Source: an uncultured Lactococcus sp. (GTDB taxonomy: Bacteria > Bacillota > Bacilli > Lactobacillales > Streptococcaceae). From it: a DNA stretch of 64,000 nucleotides. The notes beneath the pieces are model-generated. The model saw only the letters and a program-made list of their open reading frames with translations, ran no database searches and was not told where the DNA came from. Where the stretch lies: contig NZ_CAKPUG010000004.1 of NCBI RefSeq assembly GCF_934191625.1, positions 62,001-126,000 of the forward strand, in the 5' to 3' direction. A program made the translations under genes and the position numbers. This document shows, piece by piece, positions 4,041 to 36,209 of the stretch (its first letter is position 1; each line of letters opens with the position of its first letter).

Positions 4041-4717
4041 CGATCACTGAACAACAATTTTATGACATGCTGGCTGTCAAAGAACATATGAATTTCACAA
4101 ACCGAATAAAAGAACTTGTTTTTGATAAAGATGGACGTGAAGAATTTTATACTAAAATTTTGGCTATCCATAACGATATGAGTATTGACTTTTTCAGGGA
4201 CTATTTTATGACACATTCGGCTGTTTCATCAAAAGGTCAACATTATACCCCAGATGAGCTAGGAAAGCTTACAGCATTGCTTGTGGGCGGTTCTGGTGGT
4301 GCGGATTTAACCGGAGCTGGAACAGGTACCCTTATTATTCAGAAATGGCAAAATGACCGCATGAGCGCAGGTTTTTGGGATTATTACCCCAGTAACTATT
4401 GGTATCAAGCCCTAGAATTATCAGACGAAGCTATTTCTTTCTTGATTCATGCCTTTGCAATCCGTGGAATGAATGGCGTGATTATTCATGGTGATGCGTT
4501 AAAAATGGCAGCGAAGCAAGTATATTTTATTCAAAATAGTGCTGATAATCCATTAGGCTTTTCAGAAGTAAATGTTATTCCACACAGCAAAGATGCCATG
4601 GAGTTTTTGGGAATCAAGGAATGGACCGAAGAAGCCATTGAACATATTGAAAGTAAATTTCCAGATTGGATTCCACTTATAGAAGAAAAGGAAGGACAGA
4701 TGAGTTTATTTGACTAA
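4037..4717 (+). CDS. N6-DNA-methyltransferase-like phage protein, probably without activity
   Basis: A 226-residue protein resembling the HsdM/N6-adenine methylase fold. GQHYTPDELGKL followed by DLTGAGTGTLII (about 70-98) matches the GQYYTP segment and the S-adenosylmethionine-binding motif I. The catalytic D/N-PP-Y/F motif is not seen; the closest segment is ADNPLGFSEVN. Much of the family length is also absent. It may be a degenerate methylase kept for binding DNA, nucleotide or host restriction subunits. It ends SLFD, like other HsdM-like phage proteins. Confidence 0.55.
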   Translation: MTITEQQFYDMLAVKEHMNFTNRIKELVFDKDGREEFYTKILAIHNDMSIDFFRDYFMTHSAVSSKGQHYTPDELGKLTALLVGGSGGADLTGAGTGTLIIQKWQNDRMSAGFWDYYPSNYWYQALELSDEAISFLIHAFAIRGMNGVIIHGDALKMAAKQVYFIQNSADNPLGFSEVNVIPHSKDAMEFLGIKEWTEEAIEHIESKFPDWIPLIEEKEGQMSLFD

Positions 4718-5663
4718 AAAAATAAAAAAAGAAAGATTATTTGTAGACTGCTATGATGAATGGATAGAAATGTATAAAGTTGATGCAGTGTCAGAAGTGA
4801 CTCTAGCTAAATATAGAATATCTTCTAAATTTCTAAGACAAGTATGTCCGAAGCTGTTTCTCTCTGATTTTGACCGTATGGAATATCAGAAGATTCTAAA
4901 TGAATATGCCAAGACTCACGAAAGACAGACCACAGCAGACTTTCACACACAAGTAAAAGCATGCATACGAGATTTATTCCATGACAGACAACTTGAAGTT
5001 GATCCAACTTATCGAGCAGTCATAAAAGGCAAAGCTCCATCTTTAGACAAGAAAAAGAAGTTTTTACAAGTTGAAGAATTGCAAAAGTTGTTGCATACAC
5101 TTGATTTAAATAATGAGCTAGGCGTGGATTGGATGGTATTCATTATTGCCAAAACAGGAATCCGATTTGCGGAAGCCTTGGCCATTACACCAGAAGACTT
5201 TGACTGGACTGAAAATAAACTCTCCATTGATAAGACTTGGGATTATAAGTCTGGTCATGGTGGTTTTAAACCCACAAAGACAAAAGGATCAGTCAGAAAA
5301 ATAACATTGGATTGGCAGACTATCGGACTACTTAAGCCAAAACTTGAAGACTTGCCACCTAATGATCCTATTTTTATTCAAAAATTGGAAAATGGGTCCT
5401 ATAAAAAATACTTTAATTCGACAATCAATAATTTCATGTCGAGAAAATGTAAAGAAGCAGGCATAACAGAAATTAGTTGTCATGGATTAAGACATACACA
5501 TGCATCAGTATTACTTTCTGCAGGGGTCTCAATTCACAGTATTTCAGCAAGATTAGGACATGCGGATGTTGGAGTCACTCAAGAAACATATGCCCATGTC
5601 TTGGACGAATTACAGAAAAAAGACGATCAGAAAATGATTGCGACATTAATGCAAATTGCTTAG
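4710..5663 (+). CDS. Phage integrase-type tyrosine recombinase within the early operon
   Basis: A full-length (317 aa) tyrosine recombinase with core-binding domain (about 1-120) and catalytic domain. Catalytic residues visible: Arg in TGIRFAEALA, Lys in PTKTKGSVRK, the HGLRHTH box, His in ARLGHAD and the Tyr in ETYAHV. It resembles the C-terminal part of Gram-positive phage integrases. The start is TTG at 4710, overlapping the previous gene by eight bases, so it is read in the lytic early transcript rather than beside an attachment site. That position is odd for an integrase. Confidence 0.82.
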   Translation: MTKKIKKERLFVDCYDEWIEMYKVDAVSEVTLAKYRISSKFLRQVCPKLFLSDFDRMEYQKILNEYAKTHERQTTADFHTQVKACIRDLFHDRQLEVDPTYRAVIKGKAPSLDKKKKFLQVEELQKLLHTLDLNNELGVDWMVFIIAKTGIRFAEALAITPEDFDWTENKLSIDKTWDYKSGHGGFKPTKTKGSVRKITLDWQTIGLLKPKLEDLPPNDPIFIQKLENGSYKKYFNSTINNFMSRKCKEAGITEISCHGLRHTHASVLLSAGVSIHSISARLGHADVGVTQETYAHVLDELQKKDDQKMIATLMQIA

Positions 5664-8294: not shown

Positions 8295-8367
8295 AACTGA
8301 CATGGTCTAAGTGGTAAGACACTACACTTTTAATGTAGAGACGCGAGTTCGAATCTCGCTGTGGTTA
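8295..8367 (+). tRNA. tRNA-Lys(TTT)-like gene with a bulged acceptor stem
   Basis: All cloverleaf parts are present: D stem GTCT/AGAC with GG in the loop, anticodon stem CTACA/TGTAG with loop CTTTTAA (anticodon TTT at 8329-8331), a 4-base variable loop, T stem GCGAG/CTCGC with loop TTCGAAT, and A as discriminator. The acceptor 5' strand has eight bases (AACTGACA) against seven (TGTGGTT), so one G bulges or two pairs fail. No CCA is encoded. It may be a phage tRNA or a tRNA-like RNA. Confidence 0.6.
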
Positions 8368-29102: not shown

Positions 29103-29924
29103 ATGTCTTACAATATCAAACAACAAATTCGAACAGATACACCCCAAGTTGGTTGTGTACCATATCGACAAATACATGCTCATTCTACAGGTAATACTGG
29201 AAGTACTGCACAAAATGAAGCGGACTATATGAGCCGTAAGGACCTCAACACTGGATTTTATACTCATGTGGTGGGAAATGGTCAAGTTATCCAAGTTGCC
29301 CCAGTAAATCGTGGAGCATGTGACGTGGGCGGTGGTTATAACTATGAAACTTATGCAGCAGTGGAACTGATTGAAAGCCACGGTTCAAAAGAGGAATTCA
29401 TGAGAGATTATAAAATCTACTGTGAGCTTCTTTATGATTTGGCCGAGCAAGCAGGAATTCCAACCACACTTGATACAGGAGATTTAGCAGGTATCAAAAC
29501 ACATAATTACTGCACCAATAACCAACCGAACAACGGTTCAGACCACGTAGATCCGATTCCTTATTTAACGAAATGGGGAATCACACAATTGCAATTTACG
29601 AATGATATTGCGAATTGCAAAGGAAATTCATCATCTAGTGGTGATACAAATAATGGAAGTTCAGAGCAAAAGAATTATTCTCAGGAGGAAGACGAAATGA
29701 TTAAATTTACAGTAAGAAAAGACAATCAAGCAGGAGGTACAGTAGGTTATCTCTACAACGGGGCATTTGTAGTAGGTGGTGCATCTGGTAAGTACAACAC
29801 TATTTATCAAAAGCTAAAAATGATGGAGAAAGATGGCTTGATTAAACCTATCAAAGCCGAAATTTCTACGGCTGAATATCAAGCGTTATGTGCAGTATAT
29901 CCTTCACATAAAAATAAAAAATAA
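29103..29924 (+). CDS. Endolysin: N-acetylmuramoyl-L-alanine amidase
   Basis: A 273-residue Amidase_2-type endolysin. Zinc ligands are seen at HAHSTGN, a central His near FYTHVVGNG, and SDHVDP. A Ser/Asn/Gly-rich linker (about 175-198) leads to a 75-residue C-terminal wall-binding domain ([14 protein letters not shown] and on). No signal peptide is present, so the holin is needed. The linker DNA has a perfect internal ribosome binding site, see 29697-29924. Confidence 0.9.
29697..29924 (+). CDS. Endolysin wall-binding subunit from an internal start
   Basis: Within the endolysin gene AGGAGG (29683-29688) lies eight bases before an in-frame ATG (29697). This would yield a free 75-residue C-terminal domain from the same mRNA. 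Several Gram-positive phage endolysins are known to form multimers of one full-length chain with extra C-terminal domains made this way. The signal is strong; production is inferred. Confidence 0.65.
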
Positions 29925-30005: not shown

Positions 30006-30137
30006 ATGGAAAATATACTAGAAGAGATATTATCATTGCCTGAAATAAAATTGTTAGTAAATCATTGGCTAACATGGACGATGTTGTTGTTGGCCCTAAT
30101 AGGTGTTTCTATTTACTTGAAAAAGAAATCAGATTAA
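30006..30137 (+). CDS. Small single-pass membrane protein
   Basis: Forty-three residues from ATG at 30006 (GGGAGTG upstream). An amphipathic start (MENILEEILSLPEIK) is followed by one membrane helix (TWTMLLLALIGVSIYL) and KKKSD. It lies downstream of the lysis terminator and overlaps the end of the opposite gene by nine bases. The role is unknown. Confidence 0.5.
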   Translation: MENILEEILSLPEIKLLVNHWLTWTMLLLALIGVSIYLKKKSD

Positions 30138-30755
30138 TGTTTTGGCTATAAATTGTCTCCCTAGAGGAGAGAGTTTATAGCCCATTTTTTGTTTTCCTAT
30201 TCCTCCTCCGAATGTAAGAGATGAAATGTTGGATTGGAGTATACCTAAGTCGGCTAAGATATTAAGACTCCCGTCTACAAGTTCTTGCGAAAAGCCTTCT
30301 ACAGTTATGCCACCCTTAAAATCATCTGACGGATTAAAGAACGAAATAAGTGAAATTTGAAGGGGGGTTAGACGGTTCAATACTTCAAGAAAATATTCTT
30401 CTTCATTCCATGACGTTTGATTTATGCTTAAAATAGAATTTTTGTATAGATTTTTATAGAGATTTATTTTAAATTGAGACCTTGCTTTCTCCACCTCTTC
30501 ATTAATTGTTTCAAAGATGCCAATTAGTTGGTCTCTGTTAATCTCTTTATCGGATATTTTTTCAATCTGACTATTTATTTGTTTAAGGTCCTCATTTAAT
30601 GAGGTATAAAAGGCTTCGATTCTTTTGAACCGTTTCTCGTTTTGTCTACCGAAATACATTGTTTGTACAGGACCGCCAACTATAGGAATAGCTCCTATTC
30701 CTGCTTCAATTGCTAATTCTAAATATTCTTTTGGTGTCAATTTTTGTTCATCCAT
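30129..30755 (-). CDS. Unknown 208-aa cargo protein, possible phage-resistance factor
   Basis: It reads leftward against the phage late genes, with AAAGGAG before its ATG. A Gly-rich hydrophobic segment (AGIGAIPIVGGPVQTMYFG, about 14-32) could insert in a membrane. A coiled coil follows (about 35-95), then a winged-helix-like C-terminus (LGILQSNISSLT to GYKLSPLGRQFI). I do not recognise the family. Opposite orientation, location at the prophage right end and its neighbour (SieB-like) suggest a lysogenic cargo gene such as an abortive infection factor. Confidence 0.6.
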   Translation of the reverse strand: MDEQKLTPKEYLELAIEAGIGAIPIVGGPVQTMYFGRQNEKRFKRIEAFYTSLNEDLKQINSQIEKISDKEINRDQLIGIFETINEEVEKARSQFKINLYKNLYKNSILSINQTSWNEEEYFLEVLNRLTPLQISLISFFNPSDDFKGGITVEGFSQELVDGSLNILADLGILQSNISSLTFGGGIGKQKMGYKLSPLGRQFIAKTLI

Positions 30756-30982
30756 GAGTTCTCCTTTTCTTATAACAGTCTATAATATTTTAATTAAATA
30801 GTCTAATTTCGCTCGGTCGATTGACTGGGCATTTTGTTTTCTCTAGAGATTGAACAGTGATATAATACAATTATCAAAAGAAGAGGCTTGCTTCTGATTT
30901 TGTTTTTCTTAACTCCTGGTCTTATGGCTGGGAATTTTTTGTTATAATAAAAATATAAAATTTATTTTTATAAGGAGAATTG

Positions 30983-31537
30983 ATGAAAGAAACTATTATT
31001 GGCATTATTGACAAGCTGAATATCCAGATAATACTTTTAGCAATTTGGTTTGTTTCAATATTGGGCGTATTTATTCCTAAGGAATTGATTGAATACTTAG
31101 GGCTATTGCGGATAAAAAATCAATATCAGTGGATAATTTCACTAATTTTTTTAATTTTATGTGCTTACTACCTTGCCTTACTGCTATGGATGGCAAAAGC
31201 GAAGTTATTTACAAGGGTGAAAAATAGAAGATTAAAAAAATATTTTCCTAAAGTATTAAAAGAGTTAAGTGTTGCTGAGCAGAGGGTATTGCTTTATTTT
31301 TATGAAAAAAACGAACAAAAGTTTGGATTAGAAGCAAAACTTAATATTCAAAGTGCTGCAGTTAATGTTCTCTCTTCTAAGATGATTATCAGCAGAGGTG
31401 CATCTATGGGAAGCTTATATGAAGGGGTCAGCTATTATATACAACCTGGTGCACTTGATGAACTGAATAGAATGTTAGTTAATGGAGAAATAAAAATAGA
31501 CGGCGAAAGCTACGAATGGATTACATACGAGAAATAA
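30983..31537 (+). CDS. SieB-like superinfection exclusion protein
   Basis: A 184-residue membrane protein with two N-terminal membrane helices (about 12-32 and 48-70), then a basic cytosolic part. The C-terminal winged-helix-like domain (LSVAEQRVLLYFYEKNEQ) with SMGSLYEGVSYYIQPGALDEL resembles the superinfection exclusion protein B family. SieB-type proteins abort the growth of other phages in a lysogen. AAGGAG gives correct spacing to ATG at 30983. TTG at 30980 is less likely. Confidence 0.7.
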   Translation: MKETIIGIIDKLNIQIILLAIWFVSILGVFIPKELIEYLGLLRIKNQYQWIISLIFLILCAYYLALLLWMAKAKLFTRVKNRRLKKYFPKVLKELSVAEQRVLLYFYEKNEQKFGLEAKLNIQSAAVNVLSSKMIISRGASMGSLYEGVSYYIQPGALDELNRMLVNGEIKIDGESYEWITYEK

Positions 31538-31557: not shown

Positions 31558-31615
31558 ATGCTATAATAAGTATCTGTTCATAATAGGTAAATCTCTATGA
31601 CAATAGGGATTTTTC
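31558..31615 (+). ncRNA. Candidate small RNA A1 (repeated at 32549-32606)
   Basis: An extended -10, TGCTATAAT, is followed by AAGTATCTGTTCATAATAGG and a hairpin (AATC.CTAT/ATAG.GATT) ending in five T, making a complete unit of about 50 nt. The body is very similar to the segment at 32549-32606. It starts 20 bases after the SieB-like gene. A short regulatory RNA, perhaps a type I antitoxin, is possible. Confidence 0.45.
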
Positions 31616-31706: not shown

Positions 31707-31889
31707 TTACCACTCTTCATCGTAAGACTCTCGGTATCTTTTGTCAATAGAATCTTCAACGAGTTGTTCTTCAGTATATTTCTTTAGAGCTTCAGTTAGC
31801 TCCCCAGTAGCAAATGCACTCCACTTCATCATCCCTCTATCATGGTAATTACGAATAGATTCGTAGGGGCTATAAGAACGATCAACCAT
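31707..31889 (-). CDS. YolD-like protein (copy 1, prophage)
   Basis: A 60-residue protein with the core YSPYESIRNYHDRGMMKW and AFATGELTEA, matching the YolD-like family usually next to UvrX-type DNA polymerases. Almost the same core recurs at 59641-59817 (beside UvrX) and, more diverged, at 35953-36132. YolD-like proteins are suspected polymerase partners in place of UmuD. No polymerase lies next to this copy, so it may act on the chromosomal UvrX. AAGGAGTGATT precedes ATG. Confidence 0.75.
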   Translation of the reverse strand: MVDRSYSPYESIRNYHDRGMMKWSAFATGELTEALKKYTEEQLVEDSIDKRYRESYDEEW

Positions 31890-32362: not shown

Positions 32363-32557
32363 ATGGAAAAAGAAACTAAAAAAAGAAAAGCAGTATATAA
32401 CCCTGAAGCAGATAAGAAATGGGCTGAAAAAAATAAGGAGCATAAGAGTTACCTTAAGTATCGTTCGACTGCTCGTAGTTTTATAAAAAATAAAGCAACG
32501 TCAGAAGACTTAGAAGAACTGAAGATACTCATTAAAGAGCGGGAGAGTATGTTATAA
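32363..32557 (+). CDS. Small basic helical protein (64 aa)
   Basis: Sixty-four residues, rich in Lys and Glu (KKWAEKNKEHKSYLKYRST, then ARSFIKNKATSEDLEELKIL). Similar short proteins are common in streptococcal and lactococcal plasmids and prophages, with no assigned role. AGGAG lies nine bases before ATG. The -10 element of small RNA B overlaps its stop codon. Confidence 0.6.
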   Translation: MEKETKKRKAVYNPEADKKWAEKNKEHKSYLKYRSTARSFIKNKATSEDLEELKILIKERESML

Positions 32558-32606
32558 TAAGTATTTGTTCTTAATAGGTAAGTCCCTGCTTCGGTGGGAA
32601 TTTTTT
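32549..32606 (+). ncRNA. Candidate small RNA B (repeat of A1)
   Basis: TGTTATAATAAGTATTTGTT and the following TAATAGGTAA match A1 closely. The hairpin that follows has a changed sequence around a TTCG loop but keeps pairing and a T run. Conservation of the body with a varied terminator suggests the body is functional. The two copies bracket the YolD/peptide block. Confidence 0.45.
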
Positions 32607-32785
32607 GATACAAAAAAGCTGTATATATTTATACAGCACCTTGCCTGATAAAAATTTGTTACGTTTTTAACTACGTTCGAAAATATCTTGATTTGAATTG
32701 ATTTGATGTTATTTTTTTAAAATGCTTATTTGTTGCCCCTAAACATTTACATTTGACTTAATTAGTATGGTATGGGAAAATATTT

Positions 32786-32844
32786 AATTATACTAAAATA
32801 GATGCCACTTAAATAGTTTAAGTGGCATCTATTTTAGTATAATT
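32786..32844. repeat. Perfect 28-bp inverted repeat with 3-base loop
   Basis: Left arm 32786-32813, loop TAG, right arm 32817-32844, all 28 pairs perfect (arms begin AATTATACTAAAATAGATGC). It ends four bases before the -35 of the retron promoter. It is too long and AT-rich for an ordinary terminator. Options are an insulating terminator, a fold-back element, a recombination or insertion scar, or a protein site. Confidence 0.75.
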
Positions 32845-32848
32845 TTAA

Positions 32849-32876
32849 TTGACTTTTTTATTTTTTTGAATATAAT
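32849..32876 (+). promoter_or_regulatory. Retron promoter
   Basis: TTGACT (32849-32854), 16-base T-rich spacer, TATAAT (32871-32876). The predicted start near 32883 falls at the first base or two of the retron RNA a1 arm. Confidence 0.75.
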
Positions 32877-32884
32877 GGTAGTTA

Positions 32885-33024
32885 GCATACAATTAGATTT
32901 TTGATTTGTGTTTCGCAAATCTTGACAACAATGGTAGATATGCCAGCAGTTCATGCGCCTAGAAGGTCCCATTGGATATGTTCAATGTTCCCTTTGATCG
33001 CTTCGCATAATGGTATTTGTATGC
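32885..33024 (+). ncRNA. Retron msr-msd RNA
   Basis: a1 GCATACAA (32885-32892) pairs with a2 TTGTATGC (33017-33024). Next to a1 is TTAG; the G at 32896 is the expected branching guanosine. The msr hairpin GATTTGTG-TTT-CGCAAATC (32903-32921) has the UUU loop known from retron msr RNAs. The msd part folds around ATGCG (32953-32957) and CGCAT (33004-33008), with inner pairs AAGG/CCTT and CATTGGA/TCAATG. All needed elements lie in order directly before the reverse transcriptase. Exact msd ends are unknown. Confidence 0.82.
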
Positions 33025-33056
33025 CTTTTTTTTATTATTTTATTTTGGGAGTTATT

Positions 33057-34706
33057 ATGAACTATATTGAAGCAAGAAAATCTGTGTCCAAAAGATTGAA
33101 TATACCTGATAAACTACTTACATATATTTTTCATAAAAGAATAGAATATTTTTACAAAGAAATACAAATACCACACAAGTCAGGAAAAATTAGAAAAATA
33201 AATGCTCCTAACGATAAATTGAAATCTGTACAAAAAGAAATTTTAAAATGGTTTATTGAATTTTTTGAAAGTGAAGGACTTAGCACACCTTTTTCACATG
33301 GTTTTGAGAAAAATAAATCTATAATTACCAATGCCAAAATACATGTTAACAAGAAGTATGTAATAAATTTAGATTTAGAAAATTTTTTTAATAGTTTTCA
33401 TTTCGGGCGTGTCAGGGGATATTTAAGTAAAAATTTTAATATTTCTATTGAAGAGGCCACTGTTATAACTAATTTAATTTGTTATAACGGAGTATTACCC
33501 CAAGGCGCACCGACATCCCCTATTGTTGCAAATATGATTTGTCATTATATGGATTTTAAAATACTCAAAATTGCTAAAAAGTATAAATTAAATTATACAA
33601 GATATGCTGATGATTTAACATTTTCTACAAATGATAAAAAAATGGAATCAGATTTTGATAACTTTATAAGTGATATAGAAAAAATAGTTAATGCTTCAGG
33701 TTTTAAAATAAATGAAAAAAAGACACGCATTCAATTTAGGACCAATATTCAAAAAGTAACCGGCTTAGTTGTAAATGAAAAAATTAATGTAAGTAATCAG
33801 TATTATAAGATAACTAGAGCTATGGCAAATAGTCTATATAAAACAGGTAAATATAATATTGATGGAAAATATGGCACAATTAATCAATTAGAAGGACGAT
33901 TTTGTTTTATCGACCAATTGAATTTTGAAAATAATAAGAAAAAAGGAAATAAGTCAGTGAAACATAGTGTTATAAATAACGCTAATACTAATCGTCGAGA
34001 AAAAGCTTATCAAGAATTTCTTTTTTATAAATATTTTTATGCAAATGATAAACCAGTCATACTTACAGAGGGGAAAACAGACATATTATATTTAGAAGCT
34101 GCTTTAAAAAATATGTATAAGGACTTCCCATTACTTATAGAGAAGATAAACAATCAATTTATATTCAAAGTTCAATTTTTAAAGAGAAGTAGGAAACTGG
34201 GCTACTTTTTAGGTTACACTGAGGGTGCGAGTGGCTTAGATAATATTTTCAAACTATATTTCGATAAAAAATTAAATTATTTTGCTAAGCTTGAAAAGAA
34301 GAGGATAATTGGTAATCAAAAGCCAGTTTTTCTTTTATATGATAATGAGACAATAAACGAGAGACCCTTGAGAAAGTTTCTTAATACTATTAAGATTAAC
34401 GAAAGTGATAAAAAAATATTTACAGAGAATAATTACCATCATATTGATAAAAATCTCTTCTTACTTACAAATCAATTAATTGATGATAAGCAGGAGATGG
34501 AAATAGAAGATCTCTTCGATGATGCAACATTGAAAACGGAAATAGGTGAAAAAACTTTTGACAGGAATGACAAGTCTGATACATCAAAAACATTCGGCAA
34601 AGCGAGGTTTGCTAAATATGTATTGAAGAATTATAATAATATAAATTTTGAAAACTTTAAACCTATGCTGCAAAATATTAGTAATATTATTGAAAATAAA
34701 ATATGA
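33057..34706 (+). CDS. Retron reverse transcriptase fused to a TOPRIM domain
   Basis: A 549-residue protein. The RT half shows retron hallmarks: NAKIH (92-96, the NAxxH motif), LDLENFF (105-111), PQGAPTSP (148-155), YADD (183-186) and VTG (234-236). The C-terminal half is TOPRIM-like: EGKTD (338-342) with the conserved Glu and FLLYDNET with acidic residues near 429. An RT-TOPRIM fusion is the architecture of retron Ec67 (Eco2, type I-C), an anti-phage defence in which the TOPRIM part is the toxic effector. The start at 33057 follows GGGAG; an earlier start would lie inside the msr. Confidence 0.88.
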   Translation: MNYIEARKSVSKRLNIPDKLLTYIFHKRIEYFYKEIQIPHKSGKIRKINAPNDKLKSVQKEILKWFIEFFESEGLSTPFSHGFEKNKSIITNAKIHVNKKYVINLDLENFFNSFHFGRVRGYLSKNFNISIEEATVITNLICYNGVLPQGAPTSPIVANMICHYMDFKILKIAKKYKLNYTRYADDLTFSTNDKKMESDFDNFISDIEKIVNASGFKINEKKTRIQFRTNIQKVTGLVVNEKINVSNQYYKITRAMANSLYKTGKYNIDGKYGTINQLEGRFCFIDQLNFENNKKKGNKSVKHSVINNANTNRREKAYQEFLFYKYFYANDKPVILTEGKTDILYLEAALKNMYKDFPLLIEKINNQFIFKVQFLKRSRKLGYFLGYTEGASGLDNIFKLYFDKKLNYFAKLEKKRIIGNQKPVFLLYDNETINERPLRKFLNTIKINESDKKIFTENNYHHIDKNLFLLTNQLIDDKQEMEIEDLFDDATLKTEIGEKTFDRNDKSDTSKTFGKARFAKYVLKNYNNINFENFKPMLQNISNIIENKI

Positions 34707-34870
34707 TGAATTTATTTTCCTGTATTTATAGGATTAATTGAGTGTTTGACATAACTTATAACAATCTAAAAAATTATGTATAGGTTTTTTTGGGGGGATA
34801 ACCATAAATAACAGTACCAAAAGCAGACCTAATATTATTTATTTATATTATTATAAACGTTTTAACAACT

Positions 34871-34883
34871 CCCCTCGCCTCCA
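34871..34883 (+). other. Attachment-site-like core, copy 1 (tmRNA 3' end-like)
   Basis: CCCCTCGCCTCCA looks like the end of a tmRNA (T-arm end plus acceptor strand and discriminator). CCCTCGCCTCCA followed by similar bases (CAGTTTATATAG) recurs at 36198. Many elements integrate at the ssrA 3' end and duplicate it. It probably marks the right end of the prophage, with intact ssrA left of the window. Confidence 0.55.
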
Positions 34884-34914
34884 TTGACCAGTTTATATAG
34901 ATTCTTATAGACTA

Positions 34915-35038: not shown

Positions 35039-35287
35039 TTAAAAATCAATATAATTTGAAAATCTTTCTCCAATATCATCCACAGCTTTTTCAGTTATGT
35101 GAGTATATACATTCATTGTTGTATTTAAATCAGAATGCCCAAGCCGTTGTTGTGCTTGTTTTAATGTCATACCGGCATCGAAAATCAAACTTGCATGAGT
35201 ATGTCTAAATCCGTGAATTTTAATCGGTTCGAACTTAGTAGCGCCTTGTTTCAAGTAACGGAGTTCTAATTTATACAGGGCAAACAC
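35039..35287 (-). pseudogene. C-terminal fragment of a phage integrase
   Basis: Eighty-two residues hold only the end of a tyrosine recombinase: HGFRHTHAS, QQRLGHSDLN and VYTHITEKAVDD, including the HxxR box, His and the Tyr nucleophile. The core-binding domain and first catalytic Arg are absent, and the start is not supported by a ribosome binding site. It faces an att-like sequence, as expected for an integrase of a decayed element, and is unrelated in detail to the intact recombinases at 379 and 4710. Confidence 0.8.
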
Positions 35288-35952: not shown

Positions 35953-36132
35953 TCATTCCTTATCATAAGAGTCACGATTACGCTTATCTATGGAATCTTT
36001 GATAAGTTGTGCCTTAGTAAATTTCTTTTGAGCTTCAACAAGCACGCCAGTAGTGAAGGCAACCCACTTTATTATCCCTGTATCGTGGTAATTGCGGATG
36101 TATCCATAAGAGGTGTAAGAACGATCGACCAT
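35953..36132 (-). CDS. YolD-like protein (copy 2, diverged)
   Basis: Fifty-nine residues from ATG at 36132 after AAAGGAGTGATTT. RSYTSYGYIRNYHDTGIIKW lines up with copy 1, but key residues have changed (DRGMMKW to DTGIIKW, ELTEA to VLVEA). The frame is intact. It has probably lost strong selection and may be decaying inside the element remnant. The same type of operator lies upstream. A hairpin with T run (35914-35938) ends it. Confidence 0.65.
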   Translation of the reverse strand: MVDRSYTSYGYIRNYHDTGIIKWVAFTTGVLVEAQKKFTKAQLIKDSIDKRNRDSYDKE

Positions 36133-36171: not shown

Positions 36172-36197
36172 ATACATAAAACTACTTAAAACACAAT

Positions 36198-36209
36198 CCC
36201 TCGCCTCCA
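36198..36209 (+). other. Attachment-site-like core, copy 2
   Basis: CCCTCGCCTCCA followed by CTGGTCAGTTTATATAG, matching the sequence at 34871 and after. It probably marks the outer end of a remnant element (integrase fragment, YxeA-like, YolD-like). Confidence 0.5.

What the first reader, a model, noticed from the sequence alone, without database searches (positions are those of the whole stretch)
32849..34706. Complete retron with an RT-TOPRIM fusion in a lactococcal prophage
In sequence: promoter, a1/a2 arms, TTAG branch context, msr hairpin with UUU loop, msd hairpin, then an RT with NAxxH, PQGAPTSP, YADD and VTG motifs fused to a TOPRIM domain (EGKTD). The fusion matches the architecture of retron Ec67 (type I-C), known mainly from enterobacteria. 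In a Gram-positive prophage, next to SieB-like and other cargo, it is likely an uncharacterised anti-phage system that protects the lysogen.
Basis: partly seen in the sequence, partly recalled or inferred. Interest (0 to 1): 0.93.

Follow-up and report, generated by a model that had tools for sequence, protein, structure and literature searches.

The report
Retron defence cassette in lactococcal prophage
A virus lying dormant in a Lactococcus chromosome carries a complete retron, a small machine that makes a DNA-RNA hybrid and is fused to a nuclease; it is a clear Gram-positive relative of a known anti-virus system of E. coli, and its relatives are already common in databases.

Summary

The novelty claim fails: I-C retrons are widespread in Firmicutes and already annotated, also in L. 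lactis. Distinctive are lineage details: the Firmicutes group has DNE instead of DND in the TOPRIM active site (154 of 154 against 0 of 35), and the lactococcal subclade lacks an aromatic residue that Eco2 needs for DNA synthesis (0 of 8). Most likely mechanism: msDNA holds the TOPRIM nuclease off until a phage disturbs it. Function was not tested.

The parts
32548..32605 (+). Shared intergenic terminator; left border of the retron stretch
   Evidence: 93% identical over 58 bases to L. garvieae phage PLgT-1 (L185 5943-5999), followed there after 7 bases by the attR-side sequence; terminator-like hairpin 32585-32598. A related copy lies at window 31558-31596 and at L185 3955-4027.
32786..32844 (.). 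Near-perfect 59-bp palindrome just upstream of the promoter; probable transcription barrier or terminator
   Evidence: 94.9% inverted self-match; terminator-like; no exact copy of its core in viral contigs. Role inferred.
32849..32876 (+). Promoter: TTGACT, 16 nt, TATAAT
   Evidence: 11 of 12 consensus matches; a start near 32883 would fit the 5' end of a1. Not shown experimentally.
32885..32895 (+). ncRNA a1 arm
   Evidence: 10 of 11 pairs with a2; 9 of 11 pairs of this helix have changes on both sides over 23 sequences.
32896..32896 (+). Branch guanosine (TTAGA context), predicted 2'-5' priming site
   Evidence: Invariant column in the alignments; role by homology to Eco2 rG15 (PMC12405507).
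32903..32921 (+). msr stem-loop, 8 bp, UUU loop 32911-32913
   Evidence: 6 of 8 pairs with changes on both sides, 97.3% of cells paired.
32933..33012 (+). msd template (about 80 nt), borders inferred
   Evidence: Starts at the conserved AATGG junction and ends one base before the base opposite the branch G, by analogy with Eco2; the core is not conserved and does not fold better than shuffles.
33014..33024 (+). ncRNA a2 arm
   Evidence: Pairs with a1. Preceded by TGG, where the 70 relatives whose arms were placed have GAG (26, 33, 11).
33057..34706 (+). RT-TOPRIM fusion protein, 549 aa (RT about residues 1-329, TOPRIM about 330-549)
33603..33614 (+). YADD catalytic motif (residues 183-186)
   Evidence: Both D invariant in 190 of 190 aligned I-C sequences.
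34068..34082 (+). TOPRIM EGKTD (E338, D342)
   Evidence: E, G and D invariant in 190 of 190; align to Eco2 E374 and D378.
34341..34349 (+). TOPRIM D429-N-E431: DxE instead of DxD
   Evidence: E in 154 of 155 Firmicutes-group sequences (1 gap), D in 35 of 35 outside; one change on the tree.
34500..34508 (+). TOPRIM E482-I-E484 (Eco2 S513 and E515)
   Evidence: Alignments.
34811..34886 (+). Right border of the retron stretch plus att core CTCCCCTCGCCTCCA (34869-34883)
   Evidence: 82% identical to the end of the PLgT-1 record (L185 6007-6082); core exact at 34869-34883.
30980..31537 (+). Neighbouring cargo: SieB-family superinfection-exclusion protein (not part of the retron)
   Evidence: Pfam PF14163 E 3.1e-18; no tblastn match at E 1e-5 in 50,697 phage records.

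Best explanation
It is a complete type I-C retron carried as cargo next to attR of a prophage in a Lactococcus garvieae-group chromosome. Shown by sequence: the ncRNA and RT-TOPRIM gene are one conserved unit. Inferred from Retron-Eco2: the RT primes at the 2'-OH of G32896 and copies about 80 nt of the msd; the branched msDNA stays bound to the RT-TOPRIM protein and holds the TOPRIM nuclease off; when an infecting phage damages or removes the msDNA (for Eco2, a DenB-type ssDNA nuclease is the likely trigger), the TOPRIM domain is released, cuts nucleic acid (RNA, in Eco2), and aborts the infection. The lysogen's population is thereby protected against competing phages. The confidence given is for this general scheme; the exact trigger and substrate are left open, so the second rival overlaps with it.
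For: Family and fold. RT placed in the I-C clade (SH-aLRT 100), inside the Firmicutes subclade (99) and a lactococcal subclade (100). ncRNA: covariation, window hit of a model built without it, and 14 of 15 RT-TOPRIM-carrying genomes but 0 of the other 320 hit by the same model, each time upstream of the RT. Catalytic positions of both domains kept, two of them as other acidic residues. Mechanism from Eco2: PMC12405507 (abstract, Results, Discussion read); tRNA cleavage as told in PMC12956279 (passage). Cargo slot: PLgT-1 has no such cassette between the same flanks. Eco2 and Eco1 likewise sit beside a terminator in a prophage (PMC6868368, passages). A type III retron protected S. thermophilus, a related Gram-positive (PMC12322248, passages).
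Against: No experiment here shows cDNA, nuclease activity or protection. Residues important in Eco2 differ: F46 is I36, thumb H281 is N258, R332 aligns with H303 in a shorter, low-confidence loop (pLDDT under 50), D462 is E431, S513 is E482. a1/a2 has one U-U mismatch, and the base before the unpaired G is not the A seen in relatives. The window RNA alone does not beat shuffles. One phage comparison cannot tell insertion in this prophage from deletion in PLgT-1.
Confidence: 0.85

Rival explanations
1. It is a type I-C retron by descent but its msDNA synthesis or defence is impaired: a decaying or hypomorphic copy kept by hitch-hiking in the prophage.
For: Loss of the template-stacking aromatic residue, thumb His to Asn, altered base before a2 and a U-U mismatch in a1/a2. 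In Eco2, F46A lowers msDNA and defence (PMC12405507).
Against: The ORF is intact over 549 codons; a 99% identical protein exists elsewhere whose upstream reading implies the same a2 (P0001); the F46-equivalent change is shared by 8 of 8 lactococcal members (the window and seven proteins of 546-610 aa as listed), so it is an old tolerated state, not fresh decay.
Confidence: 0.1
2. It works as a retron but answers to something other than the Eco2 trigger, for instance host recombination or SSB-type factors touched by lytic lactococcal phages, and the DxE TOPRIM cuts a different substrate (DNA rather than RNA). Not exclusive of the general scheme above.
For: DxE in place of DxD at a metal-binding position throughout the Firmicutes group. 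Retron-Eco8 is triggered by phage SSB (PMC13158370, passage), and TOPRIM effectors differ in substrate (PMC12405507 Discussion).
Against: The other catalytic positions are conserved, and Glu can bind the same metal. I saw no trigger or substrate data for any Firmicutes I-C retron.
Confidence: 0.3
3. The RT is not a retron RT but a group II intron, DGR, Abi or DRT reverse transcriptase.
For: Weak profile similarity, e.g. TIGR04416 73.6 bits and Drt2 36.7 bits.
Against: Both far below their cut-offs (300 and 390); Ec67 family 555.6 above 450; linked msr-msd RNA.
Confidence: 0.01

Closest known systems
Retron-Eco2 (Ec67), type I-C, E. coli
   Different: 36% identical over the aligned residues; DNE for DND, E for S513, I for F46, N for H281, shorter loop at the trimer contact; predicted cDNA about 80 nt against 67; other host phylum.
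'Retron Ec67 family RNA-directed DNA polymerase/endonuclease' of Lactococcus lactis (P0006, P0007)
   Same: Closest named relatives, 57% identical, same lactococcal subclade (support 100); already annotated as this family.
   Different: Sequence divergence only, as far as seen; their DNA and ncRNA could not be fetched.
Other Firmicutes I-C retrons (Streptococcus, Listeria, Enterococcus, Staphylococcus, Bacillaceae, Lachnospiraceae)
   Same: Same ncRNA plan and DNE active site.
   Different: a1 there is mostly CGTGTGG... (GCGTATGATTA-like in streptococci), here GCATACAA...; GAG before a2, here TGG; streptococcal proteins are mostly longer (519-698 aa as read).
Prophage loci of Ec67 and Ec86 in E. 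coli
   Same: Retron as exchangeable cargo beside a terminator in a prophage (PMC6868368 passages).
   Different: There near cos of a 186-related prophage; here near attR of a BK5-T/4268-like lactococcal prophage.

Membership tests
Type I-C retron (Eco2/Ec67) | Retron-type RT with NAxxH, YADD and VTG motifs | tested here: met
   NAKIH, YADD, VTG present; 190-sequence alignment; NF038237 555.6 bits against cut-off 450.
Type I-C retron (Eco2/Ec67) | RT phylogenetically within the I-C clade | tested here: met
   100-row tree (quick search, SH-aLRT only): I-C clade support 100; window inside it. The one 'other' row inside, L031, is cut off by its contig end.
Type I-C retron (Eco2/Ec67) | C-terminal TOPRIM effector fused to the RT | tested here: met
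   Full-length profile match 2-547, full-length fold match. Pfam alone reports only RVT_1.
Type I-C retron (Eco2/Ec67) | Canonical TOPRIM E, D, DxD, SxE, K residues as in Eco2 | tested here: inconclusive
   E338, D342, D429, E484 and K515 kept; D462 is E431 and S513 is E482; the first change is fixed in the Firmicutes group, so it does not exclude membership.
Type I-C retron (Eco2/Ec67) | Upstream ncRNA with a1/a2 arms, branch G and msr stem-loop | tested here: met
Type I-C retron (Eco2/Ec67) | Makes branched msDNA | not testable with these tools
   Needs msDNA isolation.
Type I-C retron (Eco2/Ec67) | Trimeric, self-inhibited msDNA complex | not tested
   Only a monomer was predicted; the R332-type contact is not conserved.
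Type I-C retron (Eco2/Ec67) | Anti-phage activity through TOPRIM nuclease | not testable with these tools
   Needs plaque and nuclease assays.
Group II intron RT / DRT2 | NCBIfam score above cut-off | tested here: not met
   TIGR04416 73.6 against 300; NF041746 36.7 against 390.

The most novel reading that the evidence does not exclude
Firmicutes type I-C retrons are a functionally re-tuned branch: one ancestral DxD-to-DxE switch changed the TOPRIM nuclease's metal site and substrate or rate, and the lactococcal branch further changed how the RT grips its template and where it starts (loss of the F46 aromatic, changed base before a2), so that these retrons sense and kill by a different trigger and target than Eco2.
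Probability: 0.25. Interest if true: 0.6.

Novelty: new member of a known kind. Interest (0 to 1): 0.36.

Why it matters
As a member of a known family it is ordinary. It is useful because it comes with an ncRNA model checked on independent genomes, a phage with the same slot but no retron (PLgT-1), and a Gram-positive host group. It makes one question directly testable: does the I-C mechanism worked out in E. coli hold in Firmicutes, whose sampled members carry a changed TOPRIM metal-site residue and whose lactococcal branch lacks an aromatic residue that Eco2 needs for good DNA synthesis?

Tried and rejected
Rfam at gathering threshold lists only two tRNA-like matches in the window; with a loose threshold on 32700-33150 it lists 19 weak matches, all on the upstream palindrome, mostly plant and animal microRNA models, all below their gathering scores. 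Single-sequence folding and shuffles do not prove the ncRNA. A conserved msd hairpin was looked for in 23 predicted cDNAs with DNA parameters: z-scores from -1.92 to +1.44, no signal. Searches with the single protein found no relative in genome contigs or viral contigs; alignments did. An ncRNA pattern and the palindrome gave 0 hits in viral contigs, and one msd pattern gave 0 in the window. No near-identical DNA in plasmids. No whole genome is held for this window. Literature: 'retron' with 'Lactococcus garvieae' gave three papers, none about this retron by title and abstract start (listing only); 'retron, Lactococcus, prophage, reverse transcriptase' gave 20, of which I saw passages of three; 'retron, type I-C, Firmicutes' gave two unrelated ones; 'toprim, DxD, DxE, nuclease' gave one unrelated paper. 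I therefore claim only that I saw no report of the DxE switch in these searches and in the parts of the Eco2 paper that I read.

Rows dropped: of the 79 TOPRIM-positive loci (of 184) 14 were left out of the tree and 10 out of the residue counts, as frameshifted, incomplete or near-duplicate; the 27 other RTs in the tree were picked by hand from the remaining 105. L013 and L024 were not tried for arms; L081 had no upstream DNA; the arm finder placed L012 and four streptococcal loci (L172, L177, L179, L182) wrongly. The a1/a2 arms were chosen by complementarity, which inflates for that helix; searches do not share this weakness for the window and the streptococci, which were not in the model. 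A3 used 18 and A4 used 22 of the 59 non-window loci whose arms were found. The 155 'Firmicutes-group' sequences are the window, the 120 listed protein hits (assigned by similarity; only 7 of them are on the tree) and 34 loci; the 35 outside are all loci. In one search one RT-carrying genome (G106) was missed by the model, although the arm script finds an ncRNA there (L174).

Full report

NON-CODING RNA. Arms a1 (32885-32895) and a2 (33014-33024) pair at 10 of 11 positions with the branch G at 32896. The window alone is not significant. Comparison settles it. Upstream of the RT, 26 of 27 loci and 33 of 34 have arms bordered by AGA and GAG; the misses are L012 (wrongly placed) and L081 (no upstream DNA). 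On an alignment of the window and 22 relatives, 98.6% of 437 cells pair, against 83.9% in shuffles and at most 52.6% in slid versions; 15 of 19 pairs change on both sides, and 71 cells do, against 17.7 in shuffles. A covariance model from 18 relatives without the window or any streptococcus finds exactly one place in the 64 kb at E up to 10: 32883-33026, 68 bits, E 3.6e-13. The same model finds 14 of 335 genomes of the family of Streptococcus orisasini; all 14 are among the 15 with an RT-TOPRIM hit at E 1e-60, each just upstream of that gene on the same strand; 0 of the other 320 are hit. The fifteenth (G106) is missed by the model, but the arm script finds an ncRNA there.

PLACE IN THE FAMILY. 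In a 100-row RT tree (quick search, SH-aLRT support) the I-C sequences form one clade (support 100; it also holds L031, whose contig ends inside the gene). The Firmicutes members form a subclade (99; every host named in it is Bacillota), and the window with P0001-P0007 a lactococcal subclade (100). P0001 is 99% identical, P0002 64%, and the named L. lactis proteins P0006 and P0007 57%. None of the 335 family representatives has a close copy (15 hits, identities 46-53%). I-C retrons on plasmids of Enterococcus and Staphylococcus, and in a 2.9-Mb Listeria record filed as a plasmid, and the names show that the Gram-positive occurrence is already on record.

WHAT DIFFERS FROM ECO2. Eco2 catalytic residues (PMC12405507, Results read) map by the alignment to E338, D342, D429, E431 (Eco2 D462), E482 (Eco2 S513) and E484. 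The catalytic lysine is given as K562 in the paper; in the chain residue 562 is not a lysine by my count, so I report only that K515 (chain K546) is the one near-universal lysine between residues 500 and 534 (188 of 190, 2 gaps). At 431 the Firmicutes group has E in 154 of 155 sequences (one gap), the 35 outside have D in all; on the tree this is a single change among 73 rows (41 E, 32 D). At 36, the equivalent of Eco2 F46, F is found in 140 of 147 other Firmicutes-group and 34 of 35 outside sequences, but in 0 of 8 lactococcal ones (6 I, 1 E, 1 K). Eco2 H281 aligns with N258 (that column has H in 96 of 190). The msd core is not conserved and does not fold better than shuffles, which agrees with the flexible, insertion-tolerant distal msd of Eco2 (PMC12956279, passages).

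SURROUNDINGS. The window is a chromosome of the Lactococcus garvieae group by one marker: its Y-family polymerase is 92% identical to L. formosensis and 92-94% to partial L. petauri and L. garvieae proteins. The prophage structural genes are 77-79% identical to 4268, BK5-T and bIL286-like phages in the 20 listed of 24 records. After the endolysin (29103-29924) come cargo genes including a SieB-family gene, a shared terminator and the retron. In phage PLgT-1 of L. garvieae the sequence matching 32548-32605 is followed after 7 bases by the sequence matching 34811-34886; so the cassette is an extra stretch of about 2.2 kb (32606-34810) ending about 60 bp before the att core 34869-34883, which lies close to one end of the PLgT-1 record. 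Insertion here or deletion there cannot be told from one phage; the terminator is repeated in both, which could serve for exchange of cargo. A second, degenerate core at 36195-36209 (3 mismatches; two such matches in 4 of 100 shuffles) and an 82-aa integrase C-terminus (35039-35287, Pfam Phage_integrase) point to an older prophage remnant at the same site. The core resembles a tmRNA 3' end from memory; ARAGORN finds no tmRNA in the window, so that is a guess.

MECHANISM. By homology to Eco2: the msDNA-bound complex is inhibited; a phage ssDNA nuclease (DenB) is the likely trigger; the released TOPRIM is an RNase (PMC12405507 abstract, Results, Discussion), reported to cut tRNA (PMC12956279, passage). 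Each step is inferred for this locus. The sequence shows only that all parts are present and conserved.

VERDICT. Observation confirmed; retron reading supported; 'known mainly from enterobacteria' not supported. New member of a known kind, with clade-level active-site differences worth one direct test.

Noticed in passing
34341-34349 and Firmicutes I-C relatives: DxD to DxE switch in the TOPRIM active site, fixed in the Firmicutes I-C group as sampled, one change on the tree.
   Followed up: partly
33162-33164 (residue 36): The lactococcal subclade (8 of 8) lacks the aromatic residue equivalent to Eco2 F46 that stacks on the template; all 8 have F at residue 32 instead.
   Followed up: partly
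L011, L014, L025, L170-L184: Streptococcal-family I-C retrons mostly have longer proteins (519-698 aa as read) and often longer ncRNAs (125-202 nt among the 11 correctly placed); the extra protein part was not studied.
   Followed up: no
32786-32844: Near-perfect A+T-rich palindrome directly upstream of the retron promoter; role unknown, perhaps a transcription barrier.
   Followed up: partly
31707-31889 and 35953-36132 (both -): Small 60-aa ORF and its paralogue on either side of the att core (74% DNA identity); related DNA also in L. garvieae phages PLgT-1 and Bacchus.
   Followed up: partly
8296-8367: tRNA-like gene in the prophage (Rfam 55.9 bits; not called by ARAGORN), anticodon TTT by eye; tRNA-Lys is annotated at the matching place in lactococcal phages CAP and D7138. 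Interesting beside an RNA-cutting effector, but no link was tested.
   Followed up: partly
379-1200 and 4710-5663 (+): Two integrase-like ORFs inside the early region (phrog_1), besides the integrase C-terminal scrap at 35039-35287.
   Followed up: no
30129-30755 (-): 208-aa cargo protein of unknown family beside SieB; only a weak Avs2 profile hit (E 2.8e-4), probably chance.
   Followed up: no
L187 3602-4198 (phage PLg-TB25): After the same shared terminator this L. garvieae phage record carries a histidine-phosphatase-family gene instead of a retron.
   Followed up: partly
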